From Parcubacteria group bacterium CG1_02_44_31 (GTDB taxonomy: Bacteria; Patescibacteriota; Minisyncoccia; UBA6257; Brennerbacteraceae), in contig MNWK01000016.1 of assembly GCA_001872485.1 (NCBI GenBank), forward strand, positions 1 to 32,889: DNA of 32,889 bases, given 5' to 3'. The translations under genes were made by a program, and so were the position numbers. Below are positions 10,784 through 32,889 of this stretch, in pieces. The first letter of the stretch is position 1; the number at the start of each line of letters is the position of its first letter. The notes below the pieces were generated by a model, which had not been told where the DNA came from, did no database searches, and saw nothing but the letters and a program-made list of their open reading frames with translations.

Positions 10784-10829
10784 AAAGCTTTGATATTGTA
10801 ATCGATTTGACCAATGCAGAGCTTGTCGA

Positions 10830-10871
10830 AGCATTGTCATATTGTCATTCGGCGCTGCTCATGACAATGCT
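10830..10871 (+). repeat. inverted repeat, 11-bp arms
   Basis: AGCATTGTCAT (10830-10840) and ATGACAATGCT (10861-10871) are perfect inverted arms 20 bp apart. The flanks hold CTTGTCGAAG and GTAGTCGAAGG. It may be a terminator for the upstream gene or another dispersed palindrome. Confidence 0.6.
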
Positions 10872-10890
10872 GAGCGTAGTCGAAGGATTG

Positions 10891-10930
10891 ACCCAGCACC
10901 ACTTCTGCCGTAGCAGAAGTGGTGCTGGGT
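10891..10930 (+). repeat. perfect 18-bp hairpin just upstream of infA
   Basis: Arms ACCCAGCACCACTTCTGC (10891-10908) and GCAGAAGTGGTGCTGGGT (10913-10930) enclose a 4-nt loop, CGTA. The last base is also the first base of the infA -35 hexamer, so it lies outside the infA transcript. Only TTGACTTTT follows, a weak U-tract. It could end transcription from the upstream gene or act as a cruciform or protein site next to the ribosomal operon promoter. Confidence 0.75.
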
Positions 10931-12847: not shown

Positions 12848-12885
12848 CCCCGCACCATCCTTGTTAGACAAGATTGGTGCGTGGG
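12848..12885 (+). repeat. short CCCCGCACC palindrome, TAAA-flanked
   Basis: A 38-bp unit starts CCCCGCACCATCC and ends GGTGCGTGGG, so its ends pair. It is preceded by TAAA (12844-12847) and followed by TAAA (12886-12889). The same family occurs inside rpoD at 30650-30686. It is the first of three palindromic units placed head to tail between rpsD and rpoA. Confidence 0.7.
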
Positions 12886-12889
12886 TAAA

Positions 12890-13025
12890 CCCCGTAGTGA
12901 GAATGCGACTGCCTTAACAAAAGAATTCCATGCATGTTACGTATACAACCTAGTAAATTGATATCTGTGTATTAAAATAAAATCAGAAATACGGCATAAA
13001 ATTCTGTCGCATTTCTACTACGGGG
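12890..13025 (+). mobile_element. MITE-like element, copy A
   Basis: A 136-bp element with terminal inverted repeats CCCCGTAGTGAGAATGCGAC (12890-12909) and GTCGCATTTCTACTACGGGG (13006-13025; 17 of 20 positions match after reverse complement). It is flanked by TAAA direct repeats (12886-12889 and 13026-13029). Its subterminal blocks CTGCCTTAACAAAAGAATT and AGAAATACGGCATAAAATTC also occur in copies B (19126-19263, inverted) and C (20671-20839). No coding capacity. Confidence 0.75.
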
Positions 13026-13029
13026 TAAA

Positions 13030-13132
13030 CCCCGTATGAAATTCAACAAAATAATGCACGAGCAAAAATAAAAGATTTTCTAAAACATACTATCCTCTTC
13101 AGATTCTTTGTACTTATGAATTTCTGACGGGG
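13030..13132 (+). mobile_element. second TIR element, TAAA-flanked
   Basis: A 103-bp unit with ends CCCCGTATGAAATTCA and TGAATTTCTGACGGGG (inverted match except two positions), bounded by TAAA at 13026-13029 and 13133-13136. The interior is AT-rich without an ORF. It shares the CCCC/GGGG termini but not the subterminal sequence of copy A, so it is a distinct family or a diverged member. It ends about 30 bp before rpoA. Confidence 0.6.
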
Positions 13133-13163
13133 TAAACATAATTAACAAACGGAAAATGAACAT

Positions 13164-14075
13164 ATGATTACATTACCGAAACAACCAATAATCGTCGAGT
13201 CAGATGCCCGCAAGGCGGTTATTGAAATTGAAGGATTATTCCCGGGATACGGAGTAACATTGGGAAACGCGTTGCGGCGCGTGCTTCTTTCTTCGTGCGA
13301 AGGAGCTGCGGTCACATCGTTTCGCGTGGAAGGCGTTCACCACGAGTTTTCAACTATTCCGAACATTCTGGAAGATGTAATTGACATATCGCTTAATTTG
13401 AAAAAACTGCGTTTCCGCGTTTTTTCCAATGAACCGCAAACGCTATCGCTTGTAAAAAAAGGCGAGGGAATTGTGACTGCTTCAGATATCGCAAAGAATC
13501 CCTTGGTTGAAATCGTCAATCCAGAAGCGCATATTGCGACATTGACTGACAAGCGTGCCGCTCTGGATATGAAAATGGTTGTTGAAAAAGGTATGGGATA
13601 TTCCGAGGTAGACCAGCGTAGAAAAGAAAAGCTTCCTATCGGAACCGTTGCGCTTGACGCGAATTTTTCTCCCGTGACCTTGGTCAATGTTGAAGTTGAA
13701 AATATGATGGTTGAAGGACGAGCGGATTATAACCGTTTGCGTTTACACATTGAAACCGACGGTTCGCTTTTTCCACTGGACGCATATGACCAAGCAATCG
13801 GGATTTTAGTTGACCATTTCGGAAATTTGAGGATTGAAAAGGAGAAAACAGCCCAGGATGCTTCTGGCAAAGAACGCGAAAAACAGGTAAACGAATTGGT
13901 TCTCTCGGGCATTTCGACCCGGTTTTTGGCGATATTGGCAAAACATCGCGTCAAAACATTTGACGACATAGGGAAACTAAATCTTGATAAAATAAGCAGA
14001 TTCAAGGGTTTGGGCGATAAAGCAATTCAAGAAATTCGAAAAGTTGCCGAACAGCACGGTATTGATTTGAAATAA
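13164..14075 (+). CDS. rpoA: DNA-directed RNA polymerase subunit alpha
   Basis: The alpha dimer starts RNA polymerase assembly. The N-terminal domain (about 1-225) has EGLFPGYGVTLGNALRRVLLS (seen in shorter pieces) with the conserved GNALRR dimer motif, and MVEGRADYNRLRLHIETDGS in the second part. The C-terminal domain (about 245-303) contains LAKHRVKTFDDI and LGDKAIQEIRK, the UP-element and activator-binding surface. The 303-residue length is typical of CPR alpha subunits (E. coli 329). It lies 322 bp after rpsD across the palindromic array; GGAAAATGAAC before the ATG is a weak ribosome site. rplQ follows after 4 bp. Confidence 0.97.
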   Translation: MITLPKQPIIVESDARKAVIEIEGLFPGYGVTLGNALRRVLLSSCEGAAVTSFRVEGVHHEFSTIPNILEDVIDISLNLKKLRFRVFSNEPQTLSLVKKGEGIVTASDIAKNPLVEIVNPEAHIATLTDKRAALDMKMVVEKGMGYSEVDQRRKEKLPIGTVALDANFSPVTLVNVEVENMMVEGRADYNRLRLHIETDGSLFPLDAYDQAIGILVDHFGNLRIEKEKTAQDASGKEREKQVNELVLSGISTRFLAILAKHRVKTFDDIGKLNLDKISRFKGLGDKAIQEIRKVAEQHGIDLK

Positions 14076-14079
14076 ATAT

Positions 14080-14436
14080 ATGCGGCACCGTAAAGTCGGG
14101 AAAAAATTCGGACGCAAAAAAGGCGATCGAAATGCATTCACTAAGTCGTTGGTGCATAATTTGATTATGAAGGAAAAGATAACAACGACGCGCGCCCGCG
14201 CCAAAGAAACAGCCCGTCTTTTTGGTCCGTTGATGACTCTTGCAAAGAAACAAACGCTTGCTGCGTATCGTCTTTTGTTAGCTCGCCTCCCAAAAAAATC
14301 AGCGGAGAAGTTATATAAAATTCTTGTCCCGCGGTTTGCGAATAGAACTTCGGGATGCACGAGAATTATTGCGCTACCGCGCAGGACTCACGACGCGTCA
14401 CCGATGTGCATCATTAGTCTTGTGGAGCAAAAATAG
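14080..14436 (+). CDS. rplQ: 50S ribosomal protein bL17
   Basis: A 118-residue large-subunit protein near the exit tunnel. MRHRKVGKKFGRKKGDRNA, the LVHNLIMKEKITTTRARAKE segment (in shorter form) and the closing cluster of basic residues match bL17. Length is normal. It starts 4 bp after rpoA, the standard rpoA-rplQ pair, and is followed by rplM after 19 bp. Confidence 0.95.
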   Translation: MRHRKVGKKFGRKKGDRNAFTKSLVHNLIMKEKITTTRARAKETARLFGPLMTLAKKQTLAAYRLLLARLPKKSAEKLYKILVPRFANRTSGCTRIIALPRRTHDASPMCIISLVEQK

Positions 14437-14455
14437 CGCCATTTATTTTTACGTT

Positions 14456-14806
14456 ATGGAACCAGCTCATATAACAATTGACGCAACGGGGAAATCTATG
14501 GGGCGTTTGGCTACGCAGGTAGCGCGAGTTTTATTGGGAAAACATACCCCTGAGTACAAAAGAAATCTTCAACAGGTATGCCCTCTTGTTTCAATTGAAC
14601 ATATTGATGCGGTTCGATTTACCGGGAAAAAACTAAGTCAAAAAGTGTATCGGTATCATACGGGATATATGGGCCATTTGAAAGAAATCAAAGTGAAAGC
14701 ATTATTTGCAGCAAAGCCGTCTGCGGTATTTATGCATACGATTCGCGGCATGCTTCCCAAAAATAATCAGCGCGATAAACTGTTGAAAAATATCATATTC
14801 ACATAA
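14456..14806 (+). CDS. rplM: 50S ribosomal protein uL13
   Basis: An early-assembling large-subunit protein. ATG 14456 is selected from a longer open frame because it starts the canonical region ITIDATGKSMGRLATQVARVL. HTGYMGHLKEIK and the downstream IRGMLPKNNQRDKLLKN are the family signature. The 116-residue length is somewhat short (E. coli 142), as C-terminal extensions are missing. It pairs with rpsI, which begins 3 bp after its stop; the two are co-transcribed in most bacteria. Confidence 0.95.
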   Translation: MEPAHITIDATGKSMGRLATQVARVLLGKHTPEYKRNLQQVCPLVSIEHIDAVRFTGKKLSQKVYRYHTGYMGHLKEIKVKALFAAKPSAVFMHTIRGMLPKNNQRDKLLKNIIFT

Positions 14807-14809
14807 TGT

Positions 14810-15226
14810 ATGGCAACCAAAAAAATAAAATCCGAATCAAAAAAATATATCCGCGCAAAAGGAACGCGCAAGCGCGCTGTTGCTGTTGTGCGGCTTATGG
14901 AACACGGCGCTGACATCACGATTAATAAAAAATCCGTGAACGCGTATTTCCCGGTTTTTGAATTACAAAAAATCGTATTCGAACCTTTGCGAGTGTTAGG
15001 CCTTGAAGGGAAGGTAGGCGTGAATATTACAACCAAAGGCGGCGGCATGCGCGGACAAGCTGAAGCGATTCGCCATGCGCTTTCCCGCGCGCTTGTCAAA
15101 ATGAAACAAGAACACCGGACAATATTGAAAAAAGCGAAATTACTTACGCGCGATGCACGCGAAAAAGAACGCAAGAAATTCGGGCTCAAGCGTGCGCGAA
15201 AAGCACCGCAATGGGGAAAGCGCTAG
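14810..15226 (+). CDS. rpsI: 30S ribosomal protein uS9
   Basis: A small-subunit protein whose C-terminal tail reaches the P-site tRNA. The motifs are YIRAKGTRKRAVAVVRL, VGVNITTKGGGMRGQAEAIRHALSRAL in pieces, LTRDAREKERKKFGLKRARKAPQW and the invariant final KR. At 138 residues it is slightly longer than usual (about 130) owing to a basic N-terminus. It is the last gene of the ribosomal block. Confidence 0.96.
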   Translation: MATKKIKSESKKYIRAKGTRKRAVAVVRLMEHGADITINKKSVNAYFPVFELQKIVFEPLRVLGLEGKVGVNITTKGGGMRGQAEAIRHALSRALVKMKQEHRTILKKAKLLTRDAREKERKKFGLKRARKAPQWGKR

Positions 15227-15261
15227 ACAATAATATCGTCTTGCGATGTTGATAGAAAGTT

Positions 15262-15756
15262 ATGATGGGGAAATTATTTGGAATTCTCATTATTGTTTTA
15301 GCCCTTGTTTTAGGGGGCGTTTTTATCAAGGCATTTCAAAAATCGAATAAGTATCAAAATAGCAGAACGCCTCAACCCCTTACTTCGCAAACCGCATATA
15401 CAACTACAACGCCATCTTTATCTCCTAACATTTCTTCATCACCGTCAGTTTTGCCACCTCAAGAACCAATAGTGAAAACGCGGCTCGTGTCAATTGATGT
15501 TGATAATGATGCAGCTGGGATGACGATTGTTCACGTTCCCAAAGGATGGCGCATCAAAATTGAGCTTCATGCGATGAATGCGAATGTTGATGCACAAGGG
15601 CTTCGTTTTCGAAGCGGGACGATTGACAGTGGCGCAATTTTGCCCGGAATGTCAAAAAGCATTGATTTCATTGCTGACCAATCGTTTACCTTAACGCCGT
15701 ATGAGATGAGTACAGGAACAGTTCGTCCGTATGTGATTCAGATTGTTGTGGAATAA
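15262..15756 (+). CDS. membrane-anchored protein with a cupredoxin-like domain
   Basis: A 164-residue protein, not firmly recognised. Residues about 4-24 are a hydrophobic anchor or uncleaved signal (LFGILIIVLALVLGGVFI). A Ser/Thr/Pro-rich linker follows (about 30-70), then a beta-rich domain (about 72-164). That domain, with VPKGWRIKIELHAMN, ILPGMSKSIDFIAD and a closing strand, has the rhythm of cupredoxin-like folds. The copper ligands of true cupredoxins (Cys/Met plus two His) are not evident, so metal binding is doubtful. ATG 15265 is an equally possible start. It follows rpsI by 35 bp. Likely extracytoplasmic; function unknown. Confidence 0.6.
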   Translation: MMGKLFGILIIVLALVLGGVFIKAFQKSNKYQNSRTPQPLTSQTAYTTTTPSLSPNISSSPSVLPPQEPIVKTRLVSIDVDNDAAGMTIVHVPKGWRIKIELHAMNANVDAQGLRFRSGTIDSGAILPGMSKSIDFIADQSFTLTPYEMSTGTVRPYVIQIVVE

Positions 15757-15771
15757 TTTGGTATGTCACGT

Positions 15772-15827
15772 TAGAGACCACCCTGCCACAGACACGGCTA
15801 CGGCCGCCTTGGGGCGGTTTGTCTCTA
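15772..15827 (+). repeat. imperfect inverted repeat upstream of nth
   Basis: TAGAGAC (15772-15778) pairs with GTCTCTA (15821-15827). The interior is GC-rich (CACCCTGCC and GGGGCGG, with CGGCTACGGCCG in the middle), so the whole can fold as a long hairpin with bulges. It may terminate the upstream gene or be another member of the palindromic population. A TATACT that could be a -10 box follows at 15834-15839. Confidence 0.5.
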
Positions 15828-15871
15828 GCGGGGTATACTAAATAGAATTATTAACAGGATCACTACTCGGT

Positions 15872-16501
15872 ATGTCAGTTTCTCATCGGCAAAAAGTCCG
15901 GAATATCATCAGGACTTTGAAACGATTGTATCCGCGCATCCGTATTTCGCTTTGTTTTTCATCTCAATGGGAACTTATGGTTGCCGTGATTTTGTCTGCG
16001 CAAACTACGGACGTGAAAGTAAACCACATTACAAAAAAGCTTTTTAAAAAACACAAGACAATTCGAGCATACGCACAAGCGTCGCCTCGGGAGTTTATGT
16101 CTGATATTCGCGGCGTTAATTATTATAAAACCAAAGCGCGGCATATTATCGCAGCTGCGCAAAAAATCGTACATCAATACGGTGGAAAGATTCCTATAAC
16201 TATGGGCGCTCTTACGGGGCTTCCGGGCATTGGCCGTAAAAGCGCGAATGTGATTATCAACGAATGCACGAAAAAACCGGTTGGTATCGTGGTTGATACT
16301 CACATGATTCGGTTAAGCAGATTAATGGGATTGACCAGTTACAAGAACCCGAAAAATATAGAATTGGATTTAATGCGCATTGTTCCCCAAAGTGAATGGA
16401 GAACATTTGCTTTGCGCCTTGTGCAGTATGGACGCGATTATTGTCCTGCGCGAAAACATCGTCACGATTTATGCCCGCTTGAACCGTACGACGCCAATTA
16501 A
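15872..16501 (+). CDS. nth: endonuclease III, iron-sulfur ligands partly lost
   Basis: A DNA glycosylase/AP lyase of base-excision repair for oxidised pyrimidines. The helix-hairpin-helix motif is LTGLPGIGRKSANVII with catalytic K123, and the catalytic Asp is D142 in VDTHMIRLSRLMGL. The early LSAQTTDVKVN segment is also canonical. The 209-residue length is normal. The C-terminal [4Fe-4S] motif should be C-X6-C-X2-C-X5-C; here the positions read C191, H198, C201, D207. Only two of four cysteines remain, and the stop follows two residues later, so a normal cluster is unlikely. Both catalytic residues are kept, so the enzyme is probably active. The next gene is convergent; a 5-bp hairpin (GGACG/CGTCC, 16503-16517) lies between them. 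Confidence 0.93.
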   Translation: MSVSHRQKVRNIIRTLKRLYPRIRISLCFSSQWELMVAVILSAQTTDVKVNHITKKLFKKHKTIRAYAQASPREFMSDIRGVNYYKTKARHIIAAAQKIVHQYGGKIPITMGALTGLPGIGRKSANVIINECTKKPVGIVVDTHMIRLSRLMGLTSYKNPKNIELDLMRIVPQSEWRTFALRLVQYGRDYCPARKHRHDLCPLEPYDAN

Positions 16502-16516
16502 GGGACGCTAAACGTC

Positions 16517-17926
16517 CTAAGGAAACAATGCGGCGCGCACCAATCTTCCTGTTTGGACCCAGGAGCACGACGAATTACCGCATGTAAGCGGAAAACTAAT
16601 GTCTGTGGGAATTGTCCAATGATTCGCTGGTTGGCGCGAATCTATTTCCGCAAGCACGATAGTTTTTGCAAAAAGCGCGATGACTGACCAGTCGTCGTTT
16701 GCAAAAAAGATTTTATACGCCTGTTGTGTCAAGGGAGCAATGTAAAATGATTGTCCTTGTTCGTATTTTACATCGTCATACATTTGTTCCAGGAAATAGA
16801 CATATAGGTTGTTGCCAGTCGCATACGCCATTTTTGTTTCGTTTGCCGTGATAGCGACATCAAGGGCTGAATTTGTAATTCGCAAAGATGAACCATTGAT
16901 GGTATCCAGCACGGATAATGGACCGTTTTTTGCAAAAGCAACGAGCCGATTATTATCCAGTTCGTACAGCGACCATGCATATTGGCCCGGATGCGCAATG
17001 GGGAGTATGGCGATGCGTTTTTCAGACAGTTGCTTTGACGGGTCAAAAGAATATATGATGCCGTTCTCATCAAGAAAATAATTTCCTGTTTTTGTTTCAG
17101 ATATTTCAATAATCGGTTTTTCGGTAAAGTGCGTGTAGCGCTGTGTTTGGAAGTCAAACGCGTATCCGCCTTGGCTGGTCATCAGAATGAGGATATTGTT
17201 TTGGTTTGCGTGCCATCGGAAACGGATTGAAGAAAGCGTGAGCCCTGTTTGCCGCAGAAAATCAGCAAAATAAGATTTGCCGTTTATGATTTCTGTTTTT
17301 GTCTTTATCAAGACGGTTTCATTGGTGCGAACTAATAGAGTATCTTTGTCCTTTGAAAAAAGCGCTGAACGAATTTTATCCGATATAGAGGACGATGCCA
17401 TTTCTGAAAGGTCTATGGCGCGCTGGCTTGTTGCGTTTGTTTGGTCGTATATGAAAAGCGTTTTTAAATCAGAACTCCATGCAAACGATTGCGCATCGCG
17501 CGGCTGCACAAAATTGATTGTTGTGGTGGAAAGCTGTACGGCATCCGTGCGCGGTTGCGAATAAGGGATGGCGATACGCGTTGCTTTTGTGACCGTAAGA
17601 GGTTGCACGGGTAGTGTCTTTTGCCAAAGAAATGTTGTGGTATTAGGCGCAGCGACTTCAACAAAATATGGTGTTGGGATAAGTGACTGGAATAATGTTC
17701 CGGTGTAGAGTATTTCCGCTGCGGGTTTGACGCGCTGAACTATGTTCCCAATGCGTATAACGGTTGCCGAAGGCCGAGATTTTAAAAATATGGCGCCTGT
17801 TTGAACCCATTGGTAATGTTTCCAATCAAACGCGTACCCTTGCGACATAAGAACAACAATCGGCGTTCCGATGCAAAAAAGCGCGGCCAGAATCCAAAAA
17901 AGCAGTGTTCGATGCGATTTTTTCAT
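16517..17926 (-). CDS. membrane-anchored PEGA-like / beta-propeller-like protein
   Basis: A 469-residue protein and the only complete minus-strand gene. Residues about 9-30 are a hydrophobic anchor (FWILAALFCIGTPIVVLM). Residues 45-95 (GAIFLKSRPSATVIRIGN ... PTPYFVEVAAP) resemble a PEGA domain, a small surface beta-domain. The rest is beta-rich, with repeated patterns such as FAWSSDLKTLFIYD, IRFRWHANQNNILIL and AYATGNNLYVYF, as in WD40/TolB-like propellers, though the repeats are irregular. It is probably on the outer side of the membrane; function unknown. An extended -10 (TGCTATAAT read on this strand) ends 10 nt before the ATG. It converges with nth and diverges from the repeat-rich region upstream of the DedA gene. 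Confidence 0.7.
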   Translation of the reverse strand: MKKSHRTLLFWILAALFCIGTPIVVLMSQGYAFDWKHYQWVQTGAIFLKSRPSATVIRIGNIVQRVKPAAEILYTGTLFQSLIPTPYFVEVAAPNTTTFLWQKTLPVQPLTVTKATRIAIPYSQPRTDAVQLSTTTINFVQPRDAQSFAWSSDLKTLFIYDQTNATSQRAIDLSEMASSSISDKIRSALFSKDKDTLLVRTNETVLIKTKTEIINGKSYFADFLRQTGLTLSSIRFRWHANQNNILILMTSQGGYAFDFQTQRYTHFTEKPIIEISETKTGNYFLDENGIIYSFDPSKQLSEKRIAILPIAHPGQYAWSLYELDNNRLVAFAKNGPLSVLDTINGSSLRITNSALDVAITANETKMAYATGNNLYVYFLEQMYDDVKYEQGQSFYIAPLTQQAYKIFFANDDWSVIALFAKTIVLAEIDSRQPANHWTIPTDISFPLTCGNSSCSWVQTGRLVRAALFP

Positions 17927-17936
17927 ACGTATATGT

Positions 17937-17945
17937 ATTATAGCA
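17937..17945 (-). promoter_or_regulatory. extended -10 promoter for the minus-strand gene
   Basis: On the minus strand this reads TGCTATAAT, a TG-n extended -10 with consensus TATAAT. The -35 region is poor, as is allowed for extended -10 promoters. It lies 10 nt upstream of the ATG (17926), giving a leader of about 4 nt. Confidence 0.6.
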
Positions 17946-17976
17946 TTCAGTTTGCGTATATCGATGCTGTAATAGC

Positions 17977-18082
17977 AATGGAGTCCTCAGGGCGAAGCCC
18001 ATAATGTACGCTTTCTCATTAATGTAAAAAGTCCTTCGGCCAGAGGCTGATCCGCCTATGGCGGAAAATTCTAAGCACTAAT
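17977..18082 (+). repeat. F repeat, copy 1
   Basis: About 106 bp, nearly identical to 20318-20425 in the same orientation. It starts AATGGAGTCCTCAGGGCGAA and ends with GATCCGCCTATGGCGGAAAA and TTCTAAGCACTAAT. The TCCGCC...GGCGGA palindrome inside is also found in MITE copy C and in ppsA. No ORF. Confidence 0.8.
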
Positions 18083-18088
18083 GTTCTC

Positions 18089-18119
18089 GTCTTCGCAAGA
18101 ACAAAGTTCTTGCGAAGAC
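18089..18119 (+). repeat. D palindrome, copy 1
   Basis: GTCTTCGCAAGAAC, loop AAA, GTTCTTGCGAAGAC: perfect 14-bp arms. The identical unit is at 19004-19034, and a nested version is at 30421-30474. Confidence 0.85.
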
Positions 18120-18235
18120 TTTAATTGCTTAGAGTTTAAAATGGAACCTCGTAGTAGATTTTTAACAATCCCGCAAAGCGGGAAAAAGAAAATATGGTGT
18201 ATTATATAAAAAGGGTATACATATTGTAATTATAT

Positions 18236-18862
18236 ATGATAACACAGTGGATTTCAGGTTTTTACATCGTGTTCCAGCATTGGGGGCTTGTGGGTATTTT
18301 TATTTCCATGTTTTTGGAAAATATTGCGTTTCCGCTTCCGATTGAAATAGGATATTTATCTGGCGCGTATATGATTGAGAAAGGCATCCATTCGTATTGG
18401 CTTGTGATGGTTGTTTTAACCGCTGGCCATATGTTCGGCGCTGCAACAGCGTACGCAGCGGGCAAGTACGGTAGACATTGGCTTGAATACAGGTTGAGGA
18501 ATAATGTTTCGTTTGCGGCAATTGAGCAAAAAATCCATTATTGGTATGAAAAATACGGGGATTATACCGCATTCGGCGTGAGGTTTTTCGGATATGTGCG
18601 GTTGTTTTCTTCGTATATTGCGGGTTTGGCTGAATACAATTTTTGGCGGTTTATTATATTCACAACCGCGGGTTCTTTGTTATTTAATATGCTTGGCATT
18701 TCTGCGTCAAAGGTTTTGATGGATGTATGGAGCGTGTACGCGTCGCTTCATATCTATATCGTGCTTGGTTTGAGTATTTCATTTTTCGTATGTATCGGAT
18801 GGGGAATCATACAAAAAAGAAAGCGCGCACCTTCGCACAATCAGCATCCTGTTTCCGAATGA
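18236..18862 (+). CDS. DedA family membrane protein
   Basis: A 208-residue integral membrane protein of the DedA/SNARE-associated family; characterised relatives act as undecaprenyl-phosphate or phospholipid flippases and affect membrane homeostasis. FLENIAFPLPIEIGYLSGAYM is the DedA signature (E and P of the re-entrant loop, in shorter pieces). YGDYTAFGVRFFGYVRLFSSYIAGLAEYN contains the conserved R and the downstream G/A-rich loop. Four to five hydrophobic segments are visible, with a basic C-terminal tail. The ATG at 18236 follows an AT-rich region with possible -10 boxes but no clear ribosome site. It stands alone, between repeat-rich stretches. Confidence 0.88.
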   Translation: MITQWISGFYIVFQHWGLVGIFISMFLENIAFPLPIEIGYLSGAYMIEKGIHSYWLVMVVLTAGHMFGAATAYAAGKYGRHWLEYRLRNNVSFAAIEQKIHYWYEKYGDYTAFGVRFFGYVRLFSSYIAGLAEYNFWRFIIFTTAGSLLFNMLGISASKVLMDVWSVYASLHIYIVLGLSISFFVCIGWGIIQKRKRAPSHNQHPVSE

Positions 18863-18894
18863 GTAAAACCGATATTTTTTGTTTGGTTGTCTTT

Positions 18895-19003
18895 ATCCCT
18901 TCAGCCAGAAGACCGTGGGCTTCTTTTCAAATCTTGGATCACGGATCTTGGATCATGAATCTTGGATCTTGAACAAATCCCAATTTCCAAACCCCAAAAC
19001 AGT
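18895..19003 (-). repeat. R repeat, copy 1 (inverted)
   Basis: Reverse-orientation copy of the unit at 20462-20569 and 30475-30571. It contains three 14-bp tandem units (18930-18943, 18944-18957, 18958-18971, consensus CAAGATCCAAGATT on the minus strand). These are flanked by GAAGCCCACGGTCTTCTGGC-type sequence and by the block CAATTTCCAAACCCCAAAAC. It joins a D palindrome directly, as copy 3 does. Confidence 0.75.
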
Positions 19004-19034
19004 GTCTTCGCAAGAACAAAGTTCTTGCGAAGAC
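19004..19034 (+). repeat. D palindrome, copy 2
   Basis: Identical to 18089-18119: 14-bp perfect arms with an AAA loop. It abuts the R repeat through the short linker AGT/ACT. Confidence 0.85.
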
Positions 19035-19125
19035 GAGGACATTAAGTAATTTGGCGCTTGTTACGCGGATTGACTGTTTTTTGCGCAATGCGGTTCAGTT
19101 GAAAGGGAAAATCGTATTGGGCAAG

Positions 19126-19263
19126 CCCTGTAGTAGAAATGCGACAGAATTTTATGCCGTATTTCTGATTTTATTTTATCAACAATGTAATCAATTCTTT
19201 ACAGTTTATACGTGTTTATTTATTAAATTCTCTTGTTAAGGCAGTCGCATTCTCACTACGGGG
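19126..19263 (-). mobile_element. MITE-like element, copy B (inverted)
   Basis: A 138-bp element with ends CCCTGTAGTAGAAATGCGAC (19126-19145) and GTCGCATTCTCACTACGGGG (19244-19263). It is flanked by CAAG direct repeats (19122-19125 and 19264-19267). Read on the minus strand it aligns along its length with copy A, including CTGCCTTAACAAGAGAATT and AATCAGAAATACGGCATAAA. No coding capacity. Confidence 0.8.
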
Positions 19264-19404
19264 CAAGCGTTTTTTCAAAAGGAGAAAGCATAGGTTATGT
19301 TTTTTCAGTTATCGTATGGTACAATGAGGTGTGGGAATTATCAGCGTTGTTTACTTTTTCAAAAAGGAAAATACCTGGATTTCTTACATGTTACAATAGC
19401 ATGC

Positions 19405-19530
19405 ATGAAGAAATTTGATTTGTCTGTATTTGGGACGATCGTTCAAAATAGGGATAAATCAAATATTATTAATAAACCATCCGAATATAACAAAAATGCA
19501 AAAAAGGGTGAACAGATAATAAAGTATTGA
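19405..19530 (+). CDS. possible 41-residue small protein
   Basis: Weakly supported. The ORF starts MKKFDLSVFGTIVQNRDKSN and is rich in Lys, Asn and Ile. A TACAAT box with an upstream TG (19392-19397) ends 7 nt before the ATG, the spacing seen at other leaderless genes in the window. There is no recognisable domain, and the AT-rich composition could produce it by chance. A 77-codon version from 19297 in the same frame is also open. Confidence 0.2.
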   Translation: MKKFDLSVFGTIVQNRDKSNIINKPSEYNKNAKKGEQIIKY

Positions 19531-19631
19531 AATAGTTCGCTGGTTCAAAACCGTGCCCGTTCGCTACCCGAAGCGTTTCCGAAACCAACTTCCTCATTTT
19601 AAAGTGTAAACAACGATAAGAAATCTTACAA

Positions 19632-20306
19632 ATGAAGCATATGCATATGCAAAAAAACCTGATGAAAAAAATCGCTTTATGGGGAGGAGGAATACTTGCC
19701 ATAGGCGCCATATTTGGGTTTTTATGGTGGTCATATACCCAATCAAATCCCGAATCTGAAAACATTACCCCGATTTCCCAATCTGATTGGATACGCGGAA
19801 ATCAGAACGCGCCGGTGCGCATTATTGTATACAGCGATTTCCAGTGTCCAGCGTGCAAATATTACGCATCGTTTATGGATAGAATCGTATCGGATGAAGG
19901 AACAAATGTGGCATTGGTGTATCGGAATTTTCCGTTATATCAAAATCATCCGTATACGTTGGCTGCAAGTTTCGCGGCAGAAGCAGCTGGTAAGCAAGGA
20001 AAGTTTTGGGATATGCACGCGATGTTATTTACAAAGCAAGATGAATGGCTGCAAAGCAAAAACATCGATGAAGCGCAGGGATTTTTCAAATCGTATGCGA
20101 AAACGTTGAAACTGGACGTAAATCAATTCTCCCAAGATATGGCATCCAGAGATATTATGGATAAAGTGTTTGCGCAATATCAAATGGGGATACATGACCA
20201 TGTCCAGTGGACGCCAACGATTTTTATTAATAGCACGCGCATTCAAAATCCGCAGTCGTATGACGCGTTTAAGGCATTAGTTGACCAAGCATTGCATGCT
20301 AGGTAG
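19632..20306 (+). CDS. DsbA-like thiol oxidoreductase, membrane-anchored
   Basis: A 224-residue thioredoxin-fold protein that introduces disulfides into exported proteins. Residues about 12-33 are a membrane anchor (KKIALWGGGILAIGAIFGFLWW in pieces). The active site is C72-P-A-C75 within VYSDFQCPACKYY, and the cis-proline loop is QWTPTIFIN. RNFPLYQNHPYTLAASFAAEAAGKQGKFWDMH, seen in blocks, is the DsbA helical insertion typical of the DsbA_4/BdbD-like group. The first ATG of three near ones is used. VKOR, its likely re-oxidising partner, lies 534 bp downstream, separated by repeats. Together they suggest disulfide formation in the extracytoplasmic space. Confidence 0.9.
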   Translation: MKHMHMQKNLMKKIALWGGGILAIGAIFGFLWWSYTQSNPESENITPISQSDWIRGNQNAPVRIIVYSDFQCPACKYYASFMDRIVSDEGTNVALVYRNFPLYQNHPYTLAASFAAEAAGKQGKFWDMHAMLFTKQDEWLQSKNIDEAQGFFKSYAKTLKLDVNQFSQDMASRDIMDKVFAQYQMGIHDHVQWTPTIFINSTRIQNPQSYDAFKALVDQALHAR

Positions 20307-20317
20307 TGATCCCGTAA

Positions 20318-20425
20318 AATGGAGTCCTCAGGGCGAAGCCCATTAATGTACGCTTTTCTTATTAATATAAAAAATCCTTCGGCCAGAGCCTGGTCCGCCT
20401 ATGGCGGAAAATTCTAAGCACTAAT
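20318..20425 (+). repeat. F repeat, copy 2
   Basis: About 108 bp matching 17977-18082 in the same orientation, with small differences (for example TCTTATTAATATAAA against CTCATTAATGTAAA). It ends in the same TCTAAGCACTAAT. Confidence 0.8.
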
Positions 20426-20461
20426 TTCTAAATAATTTCAAAATTCAAATGTTCCGAATTC

Positions 20462-20569
20462 AAAACTGTTTTGTATTTTGGGTTTTGGAAATTGGAATTT
20501 GTTCAAGATCCATGATTCAAGATCCATGATTTGAAAAGAAGCCCACGGTCTTCTGGCTGAAGGGATAAA
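20462..20569 (+). repeat. R repeat, copy 2
   Basis: AAAACTGTTTTG, then GGAAATTGGAATTTGTT, two tandem 14-bp units CAAGATCCATGATT (20504-20517, 20518-20531), then TTGAAAAGAAGCCCACGGTC and TTCTGGCTGAAGGG. It is inverted relative to copy 1. The neighbouring D palindrome found with copies 1 and 3 is missing here. Confidence 0.75.
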
Positions 20570-20670
20570 ATATATGGAACACGAAAGGCAACCGACGACC
20601 ATAGAGATAAATAAACTTCAGCACCCTTGTTTATATTCAAAGATAATTAACGGGACTACTACGGGGCATG

Positions 20671-20839
20671 CCCTGTAGTGTCATGCCAGAGGCAGATCCG
20701 CCTTTGGCGGAAAAATGCGACTGCCTTAACAAAAGAATTTCATAAATAAATATATACAAACCAATGGGCATGAATTATATTGTTGATAAAATAAAACAAG
20801 AAATACGGCATTAAATTCTGTCGTATTTCTACTACAGGG
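20671..20839 (+). mobile_element. MITE-like element, copy C, with nested insertion
   Basis: A 169-bp copy flanked by CATG (20667-20670 and 20840-20843). The left terminal repeat CCCTGTAGTG is interrupted after 10 bp by about 31 bp containing GCCAGAGGCAGATCCGCC and TTTGGCGGA (a palindrome shared with the F repeats and ppsA). It then resumes as AAAAATGCGACTGCCTTAAC. Without this insert the length is 138 bp, as in copy B. The right end is GTCGTATTTCTACTACAGGG (20820-20839). Confidence 0.8.
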
Positions 20840-20840
20840 C

Positions 20841-21281
20841 ATGCGGCGAAATAATCTTTTTCCTTTTGTTGTTTTGGCTGCAAGTATAATCGGCATTGTT
20901 GATACTGCATATTTGTTTATGGGGGAATATGTATTTCATCGCGGGCCTGCGTGCGATTTTTGGGGATTTTCTTGCGATACGGTTATGAAAAGTTCATATA
21001 GCATGGTATGGGGCGTGCCGCTTGCTGTATGGGGATTGCTGTATTACGGTATTTTGTTTTTCGCGTGCATTGCATATTTTGACATGCGCAAATCTGTTTT
21101 CGTGCATTTCATTATGCTTGCTGTTGCATGGGGAATCGTATTTTCAGGTTGGCTTGTATATATTCAAGCAATGCGCCTCCATGCATGGTGTTTGTATTGT
21201 CTTATTTCAGAGGTATTAGCCGCGGTGATGGGTTTTGCGCTGTTGATTTCAATATACCCCGTGCGTATAAAGAAAAAATAA
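20841..21281 (+). CDS. vitamin K epoxide reductase (VKOR) family protein
   Basis: A 146-residue membrane protein that re-oxidises DsbA-type partners and passes electrons to quinone. Four hydrophobic segments are visible. The loop cysteines are C38 and C45 (ACDFWGFSCDTVMKSSYS), and the active-site CXXC is C117-L-Y-C120. WGVPLAVWGLLYYG matches the VKOR helix 2 region with its conserved Ser/Pro. The ATG overlaps the right-hand CATG duplication of MITE copy C, so the element sits directly against the start codon and must provide, or have replaced, the 5' region. The family is clear; a slightly different start cannot be excluded. Confidence 0.9.
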   Translation: MRRNNLFPFVVLAASIIGIVDTAYLFMGEYVFHRGPACDFWGFSCDTVMKSSYSMVWGVPLAVWGLLYYGILFFACIAYFDMRKSVFVHFIMLAVAWGIVFSGWLVYIQAMRLHAWCLYCLISEVLAAVMGFALLISIYPVRIKKK

Positions 21282-24395: not shown

Positions 24396-26855
24396 ATGAC
24401 AAAAACAAAATTGATTTATTGGTTTCAGGAAGTATCCATTAAAGATGTGCCGCTTGTTGGAGGGAAGAATGCCGCGTTGGGCGAAATGTATTCTGAACTA
24501 ACGCCGCTGGGTGTTCGAATTCCCAATGGGTTTGCCATTAGTGCTGACGCATATCGGTATTTTTTAGAAACAAACGGGTTTGACCGTAAAATCAAACAGA
24601 TTTTACAAGGCATCAATACGCACAATATTGCCGATTTGGCGCGCCGGGGTAAACTCATTCGTGATTTGATTGTATCCGGAAAATTTCCGCTTGATTTGGG
24701 AAAACAGATTATCGCGTCGTACAACGAGCTTTCAAAGTTTTATAAAACGCAAAACGTGGATGTTGCGGTGCGTTCGTCAGCAACTGCAGAGGATTTGCCC
24801 GGGGCAAGTTTTGCCGGACAGCAAGAGACATTTTTGAATATTCGCGGGGCAAAACAACTGATGATAGCAGTGCGAAAATGTTTTGCATCGTTGTTTACTG
24901 ATAGAGCCATTTCGTATCGCGTTGATAAGGGATTTTCCGTCAAAGGCGGATCCGCCTCTGGCGGAAATCCGTCCAAAATTGCGCTTTCGGTTGGCATCCA
25001 AAAAATGGTTCGTTCGGATAAGTCATGTTCTGGCGTTGCGTTTACGATTGATACCGAAACTGGTTTTGATAAAGTTATCAGTATTACGGGCATATACGGA
25101 TTGGGCGAATTGATTGTGCAGGGCGCGGTGATTCCTGACGAATTCATCGTGTTTAAACCGTCGCTTGAAAAGGGGTTTTATCCCATTATTTCTCATGCAT
25201 TGGGAAAGAAAAATATAAAGCTTGTATACAGCTCCGGGCAAAAATCAACCAAGACCGTTCCGGTTTCAAAAAAAGACAAAAATGTATTCGTACTTCTGGA
25301 CAAAGAAATCCGTGAACTTGCCGTGCAGTGTCTCAAAATTGAACAGCATTTTTCCAAAAAGCACAAAAAATATACGCCCATGGATATTGAATGGGCAAAA
25401 GACGGCGTCACCAATCAGCTCTTTATCGTGCAGGCGCGGCCCGAAACAATTCACGCGGGTAAAAAAGAAATTGTGTATGAAGAATATGCCTTGCGCGTAA
25501 AACCTGGCAGCCCGATTCTTGTCGGGATTGCGGTCGGAACGAAAATTGCGAACGGTACGGTTCGGGTGATTAAAAATGTCAAGGACATTGCCACATTTAA
25601 AAAAGGCGAAATTCTCGTTACTGAAATTACCGACCCTGATTGGGAACCCGTGATGAAAATCGCTTCTGCGATTGTGACGGATAAGGGCGGGCGGACAAGC
25701 CACGCCGCGATTGTGAGCCGCGAACTTGGCGTTCCGTGTATGGTCGGAACGGGCAATGCGACTCGTTTGCTTAAAACAGGAGACGACATCACAATTGATT
25801 GTTCTTCAGGAGAAATTGGAAAAATTTACCGCACGCTTTTGCCTTTTCGCGTGATGCGTCATTCATTGAAGCATTTGCCTAATCCGGGAGTCAAAATTGC
25901 GTTAAACATCGGGTCGCCCGATGAAGCATTCCGATACCACGCGTTGCCTGTGTCAGGCGTCGGATTAGGGCGTCTTGAATTTATCATTGCGTCGCATATT
26001 CGCATTCATCCAAAAGCCTTATTGGATTATGCAAAATTGAAAAAGGGGTTGGTAAAAATTCCATACCACCCTCAATCGGAAATCGCTTCTTTTGTGCGTA
26101 AAATTGATGCGTTAACCAAAGGATACGAGGATAAAACTCAATATTATGTGGATAAATTGAGCGAAGGCATTGCAAAAATCGCGGCAACATTTTATCCGTA
26201 TGATGCTATTATCAGGTTTTCTGATTTCAAAACCAATGAATATGAAACATTAATCGCTGGAGTATTATACGAGCCGCATGAGGAAAATCCTATGATAGGG
26301 TGGCGCGGAGCGTCGCGATATTATGACCCGAAGTTCGCTGATGCGTTTGCGCTTGAATGCAAGGCAATTGCCCGTGTCAGAAACGAGATGGGGTTTTCAA
26401 ACGTGATCCCCATGGTTCCGGTATGCCGTACGCCCGAAGAAGGGAAAAAAGTGCTTGCCCTTATTCGCAAAAGCGGCATTAAAAATTGCAAAGTGTATGT
26501 GATGGCGGAAATTCCATCAAATATTTTGCTTGCTGACGAGTTTTTGAAAATATTCGACGGCATGTCTATTGGGTCAAATGATTTGACTCAAATGATTATG
26601 GGGCTTGACCGAGATTCGGGCATTGTGTCGCATATCGCAAATGAAAAAAACAAAGCAGTCAAAATCATGATTGCTCAAGTTATCAAGGTGTGCAATGACC
26701 GAAAGAAATATGTGGGAATTTGCGGTCAGGCGCCGAGCGATTATCCGGAATTCGCGCTGTTTTTGAAAAAAGCCGGCATTCAGGCAATCAGTTTGAACCC
26801 TGACTCGGTAATCAAAACAATTATGACGCTGGGCAAAAAAAGCGTCGAAACGTAA
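24396..26855 (+). CDS. ppsA: phosphoenolpyruvate synthase
   Basis: Interconverts pyruvate and PEP, coupled to ATP/AMP+Pi. The 819-residue length is normal (about 800). The N-terminal ATP-grasp domain has VGGKNAALGEM and VAVRSSATAEDLPGASFAGQQ, with DIEWAKDG and FIVQARPET at its end. The phosphohistidine domain is TDKGGRTSHAAIVSRELGVP with catalytic H436. The C-terminal TIM barrel has FSDFKTNEYETL, MAEIPSNILLADEF, SIGSNDLTQMIMGLDRD and the CGQAPSDYPE region with its active-site Cys. About 10 residues (KGGSASGGN region, about 183-192) before IALSVGIQKMV are unusual and encoded by a GGCGGATCCGCC palindrome also found in intergenic repeats, so they look inserted. It starts 14 bp after the glycerate kinase. 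Confidence 0.96.
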   Translation: MTKTKLIYWFQEVSIKDVPLVGGKNAALGEMYSELTPLGVRIPNGFAISADAYRYFLETNGFDRKIKQILQGINTHNIADLARRGKLIRDLIVSGKFPLDLGKQIIASYNELSKFYKTQNVDVAVRSSATAEDLPGASFAGQQETFLNIRGAKQLMIAVRKCFASLFTDRAISYRVDKGFSVKGGSASGGNPSKIALSVGIQKMVRSDKSCSGVAFTIDTETGFDKVISITGIYGLGELIVQGAVIPDEFIVFKPSLEKGFYPIISHALGKKNIKLVYSSGQKSTKTVPVSKKDKNVFVLLDKEIRELAVQCLKIEQHFSKKHKKYTPMDIEWAKDGVTNQLFIVQARPETIHAGKKEIVYEEYALRVKPGSPILVGIAVGTKIANGTVRVIKNVKDIATFKKGEILVTEITDPDWEPVMKIASAIVTDKGGRTSHAAIVSRELGVPCMVGTGNATRLLKTGDDITIDCSSGEIGKIYRTLLPFRVMRHSLKHLPNPGVKIALNIGSPDEAFRYHALPVSGVGLGRLEFIIASHIRIHPKALLDYAKLKKGLVKIPYHPQSEIASFVRKIDALTKGYEDKTQYYVDKLSEGIAKIAATFYPYDAIIRFSDFKTNEYETLIAGVLYEPHEENPMIGWRGASRYYDPKFADAFALECKAIARVRNEMGFSNVIPMVPVCRTPEEGKKVLALIRKSGIKNCKVYVMAEIPSNILLADEFLKIFDGMSIGSNDLTQMIMGLDRDSGIVSHIANEKNKAVKIMIAQVIKVCNDRKKYVGICGQAPSDYPEFALFLKKAGIQAISLNPDSVIKTIMTLGKKSVET
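24936..24972 (+). repeat. GATCCGCC palindrome in frame inside ppsA
   Basis: GGCGGATCCGCC (24945-24956), followed by TCTGGCGGAAATCC. The core GATCCGCCTNTGGCGGAAA is shared with both F repeats and with the insertion in MITE copy C. In this frame it codes for the Gly/Ser-rich residues that interrupt PEP synthase before IALSVG. Confidence 0.6.
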
Positions 26856-30420: not shown

Positions 30421-30474
30421 GTCTTCGCAAGAACTTTGTTCTCGTCTTCGCAAGAACTTTGTTCTTGCGAAGAC
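30421..30474 (+). repeat. D palindrome, copy 3 (nested)
   Basis: GTCTTCGCAAGAAC occurs at 30421-30434 and again at 30444-30457, followed by TTT and GTTCTTGCGAAGAC (30461-30474). The result is one partial unit plus one full palindrome. It starts just after the dnaG stop and could act as a strong RNA hairpin between dnaG and rpoD. Confidence 0.8.
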
Positions 30475-30571
30475 ACTGTTTTGGATTTTGGAAATTGGAA
30501 TTTGTTCATGATCCATGATTCATGATCCATGATTCATGATTTGAAATGAAGCCCGTTGTCTTCTTGCTGAA
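30475..30571 (+). repeat. R repeat, copy 3
   Basis: ACTGTTTTGG, then GGAAATTGGAATTTGTT and 14-bp tandem units CATGATCCATGATT (30507-30520, 30521-30534) plus a partial third. TTGAAATGAAGCCCGTTGTC and TTCTTGCTGAA follow. It is joined to a D palindrome by ACT, exactly as in copy 1. Confidence 0.75.
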
Positions 30572-32165: not shown

Positions 32166-32193
32166 TTGAAAAATCTCATGTGTCTGGTACACT
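32166..32193 (+). promoter_or_regulatory. tRNA-Asn promoter
   Basis: TTGAAA (32166-32171) and TACACT (32188-32193) are 16 bp apart, with a TG extended -10 (TGGTACACT). The predicted start is near 32200, about 5 nt before the mature tRNA. Confidence 0.65.
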
Positions 32194-32889
32194 ATTCGTA
32201 TTATTCCGGCGTAGCTCAGTGGTAGAGCGACTCCCTGTTAAGGAGATGGTCGCAGGTCCGAATCCTGCCGCCGGAGCCAAAGAATATGATACGAACTCGC
32301 TATTTTTAGGGGAAATCGTATTTTCCCGCGCCCGCCTTTGGCGGGACGGCTCAGCCGCGCCTGACCCGACAGGGCTATTTTCAGCCGCCGGATTTCCCCA
32401 ATTTTCCCTATAAAATAGGGAAAATTTTACACATTCTTTGGAATAAATTATCTTCTCAATGAATTTTTTGGCCCAAAGATTTTTCTCAATTCCTTTCTTT
32501 TTTGCGAGAGTAGAAAGGAAAAATTTTAGAGCATTGGAGATGGTTTCCGGCGAAAATTTAGAGCATGGTTGCGTTAGTTCGTATCCAGTTTGGCGGGGGA
32601 TTGCTGAATTTTTTAATTCGGGATTCGAACTATGGTTGAACTTGAAAGCAAGATTTTCTAAATAGTTTTTATCAAGGGAAATCCGCTCTAAATTTTCCAA
32701 AGCATAATTTTCTAACCTTTCGGCGGAAACTTGTTTTACCGAACAAGCTTGCCAGTCCTGTCTTAAAGTGGAAGTACAGCGATAGTAATAGTATCTTTTC
32801 AGTTTTCCATTTGCTTTTTTGTTGGTAAAGCAAGATGTCATTTTGGAGTCGCATTCCTCGCAATTTACCAATCCGCCGAAAAGAAAATT
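32176..32889 (-). CDS. large serine recombinase, C-terminal part (runs off the window)
   Basis: The frame is open at the right edge, so the N-terminal catalytic domain lies outside. The first visible residues are LFGGLVNCEECDSKMTSC, the start of the recombinase zinc-ribbon domain; the second cysteine group is RCTSTLRQDWQACSVKQVS. A helical, probably coiled-coil region follows (ERLENYALENLERISL ... EKIIYSKECVKFSLFYRENWG). The last 80 or so codons, from NPAAENSPVG on, pass through a CCCGCC/GGCGGG palindrome (32331-32345) and then antisense through the whole tRNA-Asn gene to a stop at 32176. That tail is unlikely to be original. The layout suggests an integrase next to its attachment site in the tRNA, with the element extending to the right. 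Confidence 0.8.
   Translation of the reverse strand, partial: NFLFGGLVNCEECDSKMTSCFTNKKANGKLKRYYYYRCTSTLRQDWQACSVKQVSAERLENYALENLERISLDKNYLENLAFKFNHSSNPELKNSAIPRQTGYELTQPCSKFSPETISNALKFFLSTLAKKKGIEKNLWAKKFIEKIIYSKECVKFSLFYRENWGNPAAENSPVGSGAAEPSRQRRARENTISPKNSEFVSYSLAPAAGFGPATISLTGSRSTTELRRNNTNSVPDT
32205..32279 (+). tRNA. tRNA-Asn (anticodon GTT)
   Basis: A 75-nt cloverleaf with encoded CCA. The acceptor stem TCCGGCG/CGCCGGA is perfect and the discriminator is G, as for Asn. The D arm is GCTC/GAGC with the GG pair in the loop. The anticodon loop is CTGTTAA (anticodon GTT) and the T stem is GCAGG/CCTGC. Two oddities are visible. The T loop reads TCCGAAT instead of TTCGAAT, so position 55, nearly always pseudouridine, is C. 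The outer anticodon-stem pair is A-A. It has its own promoter and is followed by a hairpin with a T-run. The serine recombinase frame reads antisense through the gene. Confidence 0.93.
32401..32428 (+). terminator. perfect hairpin downstream of tRNA-Asn
   Basis: ATTTTCCCTAT (32401-32411), loop AAA, ATAGGGAAAAT (32415-32425), then more T. This 11-bp stem with a T-tract could end the tRNA transcript. It lies inside the recombinase frame on the other strand, near where the real recombinase domain appears to end. Confidence 0.5.

What the first reader, a model, noticed from the sequence alone, without database searches (positions are those of the whole stretch)
12886..20843. Three-copy MITE-like family with different 4-bp target duplications
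Copies at 12890-13025, 19126-19263 (inverted) and 20671-20839 share 20-bp terminal inverted repeats (CCCCGTAGT...TGCGAC type), subterminal blocks and a length of 136-138 bp (169 with a nested insert). Each is bounded by its own direct repeat: TAAA, CAAG and CATG. Family-specific ends with copy-specific flanks are what transposition leaves behind. No transposase with these ends is in the window, so the element is non-autonomous. The GTAG in the terminus also recalls REP sequences moved by Y1 (RAYT) transposases, but those do not normally make target duplications.
Basis: partly seen in the sequence, partly recalled or inferred. Interest (0 to 1): 0.82.

Follow-up and report, generated by a model that had tools for sequence, protein, structure and literature searches.

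The report
Tiny transposons with a GIY-YIG nuclease
The three repeats are short, gene-less jumping DNA pieces in a tiny uncultured bacterium, and their gene-carrying relatives, only about 280 to 325 base pairs long, hold nothing but a GIY-YIG DNA-cutting enzyme, which points to a kind of transposon run by an enzyme not known to move transposons.

Summary
The three copies have 16-17/20-bp inverted ends (interrupted in copy 3) and exact 4-bp flanking repeats (TAAA, CAAG, CATG). The host genome (527 kb, Patescibacteria/CPR) has 82 such end motifs against 7 for a reversed control. Of 32 paired elements, 24 have identical 4-bp flanks at the exact ends, against 0-1 at 16 shifted offsets. Empty sites exist in related genera. 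It is a MITE-like family.

The further result is the likely mobiliser. Relatives with the same ends and 4-bp duplications carry one ~85-105 aa GIY-YIG nuclease gene and nothing else (275-325 bp). In CPR genomes, 13 of 117 GIY-YIG genes sit exactly inside CCC/TCC-type inverted repeats with 4-bp duplications, against 0 of 1140 control windows. The end type follows the nuclease tree (4 changes; shuffled mean 19.5). A prediction on fresh genomes held: 9 of the 10 closest new type-A nucleases have type-A ends.

No IS4/IS5-type or IS1380 transposase was found in the host family; the Y1/RAYT genes there have other palindromes. That GIY-YIG catalyses the movement is inferred, not shown. No paper found describes such elements.

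The parts
12890..13025 (+). Type-A MITE copy 1 (136 bp), ends CCCCGTAGTGAGAATGCGAC / CCCCGTAGTAGAAATGCGAC (17/20)
12886..12889 (.). Left TAAA target duplication of copy 1, shared with the hairpin to its left
13026..13029 (.). Right TAAA target duplication of copy 1, shared with the element to its right
12848..12885 (+). Type-B hairpin (38 bp, CCCCGCACCATCC..GGTGCGTGGG), flanked TAAA/TAAA, abutting copy 1
   Evidence: same end type as GIY-YIG elements L167, L178, L206
13030..13132 (+). Third array member (103 bp, CCCCGTATGAAATTC / CCCCGTCAGAAATTC, 15/20), flanked TAAA/TAAA
   Evidence: ends resemble GIY-YIG element L131 of G049
19126..19263 (-). Type-A MITE copy 2 (138 bp), duplication CAAG at 19122-19125 and 19264-19267
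20671..20839 (+). Type-A MITE copy 3 (169 bp, with a 33-bp palindromic block in the left arm), duplication CATG at 20667-20670 and 20840-20843
20643..20666 (-). Remnant end of another type-A element (ATAATTAACGGGACTACTACGGGG) abutting copy 3 and sharing its CATG
   Evidence: matches the element at C32:9319
10892..10929 (+). Type-B hairpin CCCAGCACCACTTCTGC-CGTA-GCAGAAGTGGTGCTGGG with duplication TTGA on both sides
   Evidence: same hairpin with TAAA, TCAA or TTTA at other sites in the genome
18147..18208 (+). Truncated type-A element (CCTCGTAGTAGATTTTTAACAATCCC..), right end missing; the end coordinate is approximate
20841..21281 (+). Host gene (146 aa) whose ATG start lies in the right CATG copy of element 3: the duplication keeps the start codon

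Best explanation
The three repeats are non-autonomous members (MITEs) of a class of very small mobile elements in Patescibacteria whose autonomous form is ~275-325 bp long and carries one gene, a single-domain GIY-YIG nuclease, between imperfect terminal inverted repeats. Shown: the inverted ends, 4-bp target duplications at many different sites, arrays that share one tetramer, empty sites in relatives, GIY-YIG genes precisely inside the same kind of ends, and end type following nuclease clade. Inferred: the nuclease binds its cognate ends (possibly as a hairpin or cruciform, given that nearly all members are foldback palindromes), cuts the element ends and a 4-bp staggered target (mostly YNNR, such as TATA, TATG, TAAA or TGAA), and joining plus gap filling leaves the 4-bp duplication. 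The MITEs keep the ends, have lost the gene and are moved in trans. Whether the nuclease also joins strands or leaves that to host repair is unknown.
For: Copies, ends and exact 4-bp duplications. A 316-bp element in another CPR genome (L108) with ends CCCCGTAGTAGATTTTTGAC (16/20 identical to the window end CCCCGTAGTAGAAATGCGAC) and AGAA on both sides contains only an 88-aa GIY-YIG ORF. The host genome has a 312-bp GIY-YIG element flanked by TATG (G000:C33 5119-5430, L122). Across the family and order, 13 of 117 GIY-YIG genes lie in CCC/TCC-type ends with identical 4-bp flanks versus 0/1140 controls; duplication lengths 3, 5 and 6 give 4, 0 and 2. End types A, B, C and D, assigned from the DNA before the tree was made, need 4 changes on the nuclease tree (minimum 3; shuffled mean 19.5, 0/200 as low; B 99/97, D 99/84 support). 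Fresh test across the phylum: 7 of 69 with CCC/TCC ends and exact duplication versus 0/713 controls, and 9 of the 10 nearest type-A proteins have type-A ends. Both window hairpin types (A and B) have GIY-YIG partners. Empty sites: G029:C19 element versus own C20 (gap-free alignment across the junction); G066 GIY-YIG element absent between the same two genes in G029. Catalytic motif residues (Y..Y, YxG, R, E) are largely kept. No DDE_Tnp_1 or IS1380 transposase above cut-off in the family.
Against: No biochemical or live transposition evidence. GIY-YIG enzymes are known to me as hydrolytic nucleases, not strand-transfer enzymes. The host genome's own GIY-YIG element has ends (CCCAGTAATACAACTTCCAGC) that differ clearly from the window MITE ends, so the exact cognate nuclease was not found in this genome (94% complete). 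Most GIY-YIG genes examined lack recognisable ends; many belong to other clades or are decayed. Only three transposase families were tested.
Confidence: 0.7

Rival explanations
1. Ordinary MITEs of a DDE-type insertion sequence whose autonomous copy is missing from the assembly; the GIY-YIG genes are passengers caught between the ends.
For: Inverted ends starting CCC and a fixed 4-bp duplication are typical of DDE elements. The assembly is 94% complete and breaks at elements (C11 and C30 begin with the same 99 bp inside an element).
Against: No DDE_Tnp_1 or IS1380-type gene above cut-off in six genomes of the family. The end type follows the GIY-YIG clade across many CPR families, which a passenger would not do unless each clade were locked to its own unseen transposase. 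The elements are filled by the nuclease gene. Other DDE families were not tested.
Confidence: 0.2
2. REP/RAYT system: hairpins with a GTAG motif moved by a Y1 transposase.
For: GTAG near the ends; hairpin form; two Y1_Tnp genes in the genome.
Against: Exact 4-bp duplications at nearly all complete copies, which Y1 enzymes are not known to make. The Y1 genes have other palindromes around them (for example AAGGACATCGCAAGTCC) and no GTAGT hairpin. Four of the six family genomes have no Y1 gene, yet three of those four (G049, G066, G029) have the elements.
Confidence: 0.04
3. Homing: the GIY-YIG gene spreads by cutting the empty allele and being copied in by recombination, as in intron homing, and the hairpins are incidental.
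For: GIY-YIG is a homing endonuclease family; the weak NCBIfam match is to group I intron endonuclease.
Against: Insertion sites are unrelated in sequence and carry 4-bp duplications; homing needs homologous sites and leaves no duplication. Hairpin-only copies outnumber gene copies in the host genome. [quoted passage not shown]
Confidence: 0.03
4. The hairpins are functional regulatory or RNA structures (terminators or processing sites) kept by selection, not mobile DNA.
For: Strong hairpins, mostly between genes.
Against: Copy-specific 4-bp duplications, empty sites, nuclease-coding versions with the same ends, no Rfam match other than the tRNA.
Confidence: 0.02

Closest known systems
MITEs of bacterial insertion sequences (general; resemblance from my own knowledge)
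   Same: Short, no ORF, terminal inverted repeats, fixed-length target duplication, many copies per genome
   Different: The related autonomous elements carry a GIY-YIG nuclease of ~90 aa, not a DDE transposase, and are themselves only 275-325 bp
REP sequences and RAYT (Y1) transposases
   Same: Palindromic, intergenic, GTAG motif near the end
   Different: Exact 4-bp target duplications; no Y1 gene with these ends; different palindromes around the Y1 genes
Free-standing and intron GIY-YIG homing endonucleases (my own knowledge)
   Same: Same nuclease domain, selfish spread
   Different: Defined inverted ends, target duplication, non-homologous insertion sites, no intron
Penelope-like retroelements (eukaryotic, GIY-YIG domain plus reverse transcriptase; my own knowledge)
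   Same: A GIY-YIG nuclease linked to mobility and target duplication
   Different: No reverse transcriptase here; DNA element with inverted ends and a fixed 4-bp duplication
Casposons (Cas1 as integrase, PMC4046053)
   Same: Precedent for a transposon run by an enzyme of a nuclease family outside the usual transposases, with inverted ends and target duplication
   Different: Much larger, different enzyme and duplication length
GIY-YIG-coding and short ORF-less insertions in CPR rRNA genes (PMC11270868)
   Same: Same clade of bacteria; GIY-YIG ORFs in insertions that are not introns, plus many ORF-less insertions under 200 bp
   Different: The passages of that paper I read do not describe ends, duplications or mobility; my link to these elements is an inference, not tested on those loci

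Membership tests
MITE (non-autonomous TIR element) | Terminal inverted repeats | tested here: met
   17/20 and 16/20 matching ends; 82 end motifs versus 7 control
MITE (non-autonomous TIR element) | Fixed-length target duplication at different sites | tested here: met
   24/32 exact 4-bp matches at offset 0, 0-1 at other offsets; eight different tetramers
MITE (non-autonomous TIR element) | No own transposase gene; related autonomous element with the same ends | tested here: met
   No ORF fills the 136-bp copies; 310-325-bp GIY-YIG elements with type-A ends exist (L108, L122, L179, L259, L264). The exact cognate in the same genome was not found
MITE (non-autonomous TIR element) | Empty sites in relatives | tested here: met
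   G029:C19 MITE versus own C20. Only at genus distance; not tested on the three window copies themselves
REP/RAYT (Y1 transposase) | No target duplication | tested here: not met
   Exact 4-bp duplications
REP/RAYT (Y1 transposase) | Y1 gene flanked by the same palindromes | tested here: not met
   Y1 loci L095-L098 have other palindromes
DDE insertion sequence (IS4/IS5-type, IS1380) | DDE transposase gene in the genome or family | tested here: not met
   PF01609 and PF13701: nothing above cut-off in six genomes; other DDE families not tested
GIY-YIG-coded transposon (proposed) | GIY-YIG gene precisely inside inverted ends with a 4-bp duplication | tested here: met
   13/117 versus 0/1140, and 7/69 versus 0/713
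GIY-YIG-coded transposon (proposed) | End type follows nuclease phylogeny | tested here: met
   4 changes versus shuffled mean 19.5; 9 of 10 out-of-sample type-A proteins with type-A ends
GIY-YIG-coded transposon (proposed) | The nuclease cuts and moves the element | not testable with these tools
   Needs biochemistry or a mobility assay

The most novel reading that the evidence does not exclude
A distinct class of DNA transposon, widespread in Patescibacteria, in which a ~90-aa GIY-YIG nuclease is the only element-coded protein. At ~275-325 bp they would be among the smallest autonomous transposons known, with a mechanism (possibly acting on hairpin or cruciform ends) different from DDE, HUH, tyrosine, serine and Cas1 transposases.
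Probability: 0.65. Interest if true: 0.93.

Novelty: categorically new. Interest (0 to 1): 0.87.

Why it matters
Transposons are classed by the chemistry of their enzyme. A GIY-YIG nuclease moving DNA with a 4-bp target duplication would add a class, lower the size limit of an autonomous element to about 300 bp, and explain why small GIY-YIG genes are so numerous in reduced CPR genomes (up to 11 per genome). It may also explain the non-intron insertions in CPR rRNA genes (PMC11270868). The idea is directly testable with very small constructs.

Tried and rejected
(1) RAYT/Y1: found in the genome but with other palindromes. (2) IS1380/piggyBac-like, suggested by CCC ends and a 4-bp duplication: no PF13701 match. 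(3) IS4/IS5-type DDE: no PF01609 match above cut-off. (4) An Rfam RNA: only a tRNA in the window. (5) Carriage on phages or plasmids: no match of the type-A protein in phages, weak matches of the type-C protein (40-42% identity) in three plasmids, no relative in viral contigs; the viral-contig pattern hits were stretches without a partner end. (6) Empty sites for G066 MITEs at C1:37506 and C6:6362: no clean junction in G029. (7) AlphaFold of the L108 nuclease from a single sequence: pLDDT 53, uninformative; by sequence the nearest solved structures are UPF0213 proteins 1zg2 and 1ywl and SLX1 nucleases. (9) Literature: seven searches that named GIY-YIG together with repeats, mobility or Parcubacteria found no description of such elements; subscription journals and preprints are not covered.
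Full report
CHECK OF THE OBSERVATION. They share 82-85% of aligned bases. Copy 3 carries a 33-bp palindromic block right after GTAGTG in its left arm; the same block sits in the same place in other genome copies (C25:3855, C32:1098, C32:23312), so it marks a sub-lineage rather than a fresh nested insertion. The window is contig C34 of a 527-kb genome in 37 contigs. The 136-bp sequence has 14 matches at E < 1e-10 in that genome. The ten-base end CCCYGTAGTR occurs 82 times against 7 for the reversed pattern. For 32 elements with both ends, the four bases before the left end equal the four after the right end in 24 cases; at 16 shifted offsets the count is 0 or 1 (three right or left ends were adjusted by eye by one to a few bases). 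Duplications are TATA (11), CATA, TAAA and TTTA (3 each), TTGA, CAAG, CATG and TATG; all have a pyrimidine first and a purine last.

MORE THAN ONE FAMILY. A scan of 120 kb of the host genome (a set enriched for elements) for inverted repeats with identical flanks gives an excess only for flank length 4 and only for repeats starting CCC: 18 of 51, next commonest start 3. This exposes a second hairpin family (CCCAGCACCAC..GTGGTGCTGGG; in the window 10892-10929 with TTGA on both sides, elsewhere with TAAA, TCAA or TTTA) and smaller ones. Elements often abut and share one tetramer. Copy 1 is the middle of TAAA-38 bp-TAAA-136 bp-TAAA-103 bp-TAAA, and C31 has TTTA-hairpin-TTTA-hairpin-TTTA. Repeated insertion at the border of an existing element explains this.

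SEARCH FOR THE MOBILISER. Related genomes of the same family carry elements with similar ends and exact duplications. Y1 transposases exist, but with other palindromes around them. IS1380-type and IS4/IS5-type transposases are absent or below cut-off in the six genomes of the family. A scan of 85,462 species for the end motif gave 16 stretches, mostly Parcubacteria. One of them, L108, is a 316-bp element with matching ends and AGAA on both sides whose only ORF is an 88-aa GIY-YIG protein.

TEST OF THE GIY-YIG LINK. GIY-YIG genes were collected from the family and order. Of 117, 29 lie within inverted ends with identical 4-bp flanks, 13 of them of CCC/TCC type; control windows in the same loci give 60 of 1140 and 0 of 1140. 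The host genome itself has one, 312 bp at C33 5119-5430 flanked by TATG (L122). Four end types appear: A (GTAGT..TTYRRC, the type of the window MITEs), B (GCACC.., the type of the second window hairpin), C (GTTAGAGA) and D (CTTCGACAAGCTCAG-like). I assigned the types from the DNA, then built a tree of 118 nucleases. The four labels need 4 changes (minimum 3; shuffled mean 19.5; 0 of 200 as low), B with 99/97 and D with 99/84 support; A, B and C lie in one 45-row clade with 99/84. The tree rests on only 90 columns, so many deep forks are unresolved. Fresh test: a profile of six type-A proteins was run over 287 genomes of the phylum (57 with a match at E <= 1e-25); of the ten nearest loci outside the host genome nine have type-A ends, and over 69 loci 7 have CCC/TCC ends with an exact duplication versus 0 of 713 controls. 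The proteins largely keep the GIY-YIG signature residues.

EMPTY SITES. The 168-bp type-A MITE of G029 (C19:25482, TGGA) lies at the start of a gene; its joined flanks align without a gap across the junction with the host genome's own gene (C20, 75% over 119 nt). The 277-bp GIY-YIG element of G066 (C1:10460, TTCA) lies between two genes that are neighbours without it in G029. Both comparisons are between genera or species, not strains, and none is at the three window sites.

LANDING SITES. Several duplications hold a start or stop codon of the neighbouring gene: copy 3 (CATG) supplies the ATG of the 146-aa gene at 20841; C20:3369 that of an ORF beginning MPTVHQLVKKGR (ribosomal protein S12 by my reading); C32:9179 and C36:11191 those of two long ORFs; C18:7900 (TAAA) the stop of a gene that reads as a ribosomal-protein gene. 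In type C the nuclease reads into its own end and is stopped by TGA from the TGAA duplication. Such sites spare the neighbouring gene. This is an observation on few cases, without a null model.

MECHANISM. Shown: ends, duplications, empty sites, and the cis link and co-variation of end type with nuclease. Inferred: the nuclease recognises its ends, cuts a 4-bp stagger, and repair makes the duplication; MITEs use a nuclease in trans. Unknown: who joins the strands, whether a hairpin or cruciform is the substrate (the nearest solved relatives after UPF0213 proteins are SLX1 structure-specific nucleases), and which nuclease moved the window copies, since the host's L122 has diverged ends. The main rival, a missing DDE enzyme with GIY-YIG passengers, is weakened by the co-variation but not excluded; only three transposase families were searched.

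WHAT IS KNOWN. Seven literature searches that named GIY-YIG with repeats, mobility or Parcubacteria found no account of such elements (subscription journals and preprints not covered). [quoted passage not shown] That fits, though I did not test those loci.

Noticed in passing
window 24933-24967: A palindromic repeat (CCGTCAAAGGCGGATCCGCCTCTGGCGGAAA) lies in frame inside a long ORF at 24396-26855 (PEP synthase by my reading), adding residues to the protein; the same repeat is the 33-bp block in MITE copy 3.
   Followed up: no
window 18089-18119, 19004-19034, 30421-30474: Perfect 31-bp palindrome GTCTTCGCAAGAACAAAGTTCTTGCGAAGAC in several copies; it resembles in form the palindromes around Y1/RAYT genes in L096 and L098, so it may be a REP of such an enzyme.
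   Followed up: partly
window 18938-19041, 20465-20569, 30437-30571: A ~100-bp dispersed repeat (ACTGTTTTGTATTTTGGGTTTTGGAAATTGGAATTTGTTCA..) in direct and inverted copies next to the palindromes.
   Followed up: no
window 10818-10890: A type-D-like repeat (AGAGCTTGTCGAAGCATTGTCAT..ATGACAATGCTGAGCGTAGTCGAAGG) directly left of the type-B hairpin; CTTCGACAAGCTCAG-like ends flank a fourth clade of GIY-YIG genes (L126, L143, L163, L180, L236).
   Followed up: partly
window 32176-32889: The C-terminal part of what reads like a large serine recombinase overlaps a tRNA gene (32205-32276) at the contig end: possibly the edge of an integrated element.
   Followed up: no
G000 C11:1-99 and C30:1-99 (L020, L058): Two contigs begin with the same 99 bp starting inside a type-A element: the assembly breaks at these repeats, so more copies may be missing.
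   Followed up: partly
L096, L098 (G003:C2, G000:C19): Y1/RAYT-like genes are accompanied by their own palindromes (AAGGACATCGCAAGTCC type): a separate REP/RAYT system in these CPR genomes.
   Followed up: partly
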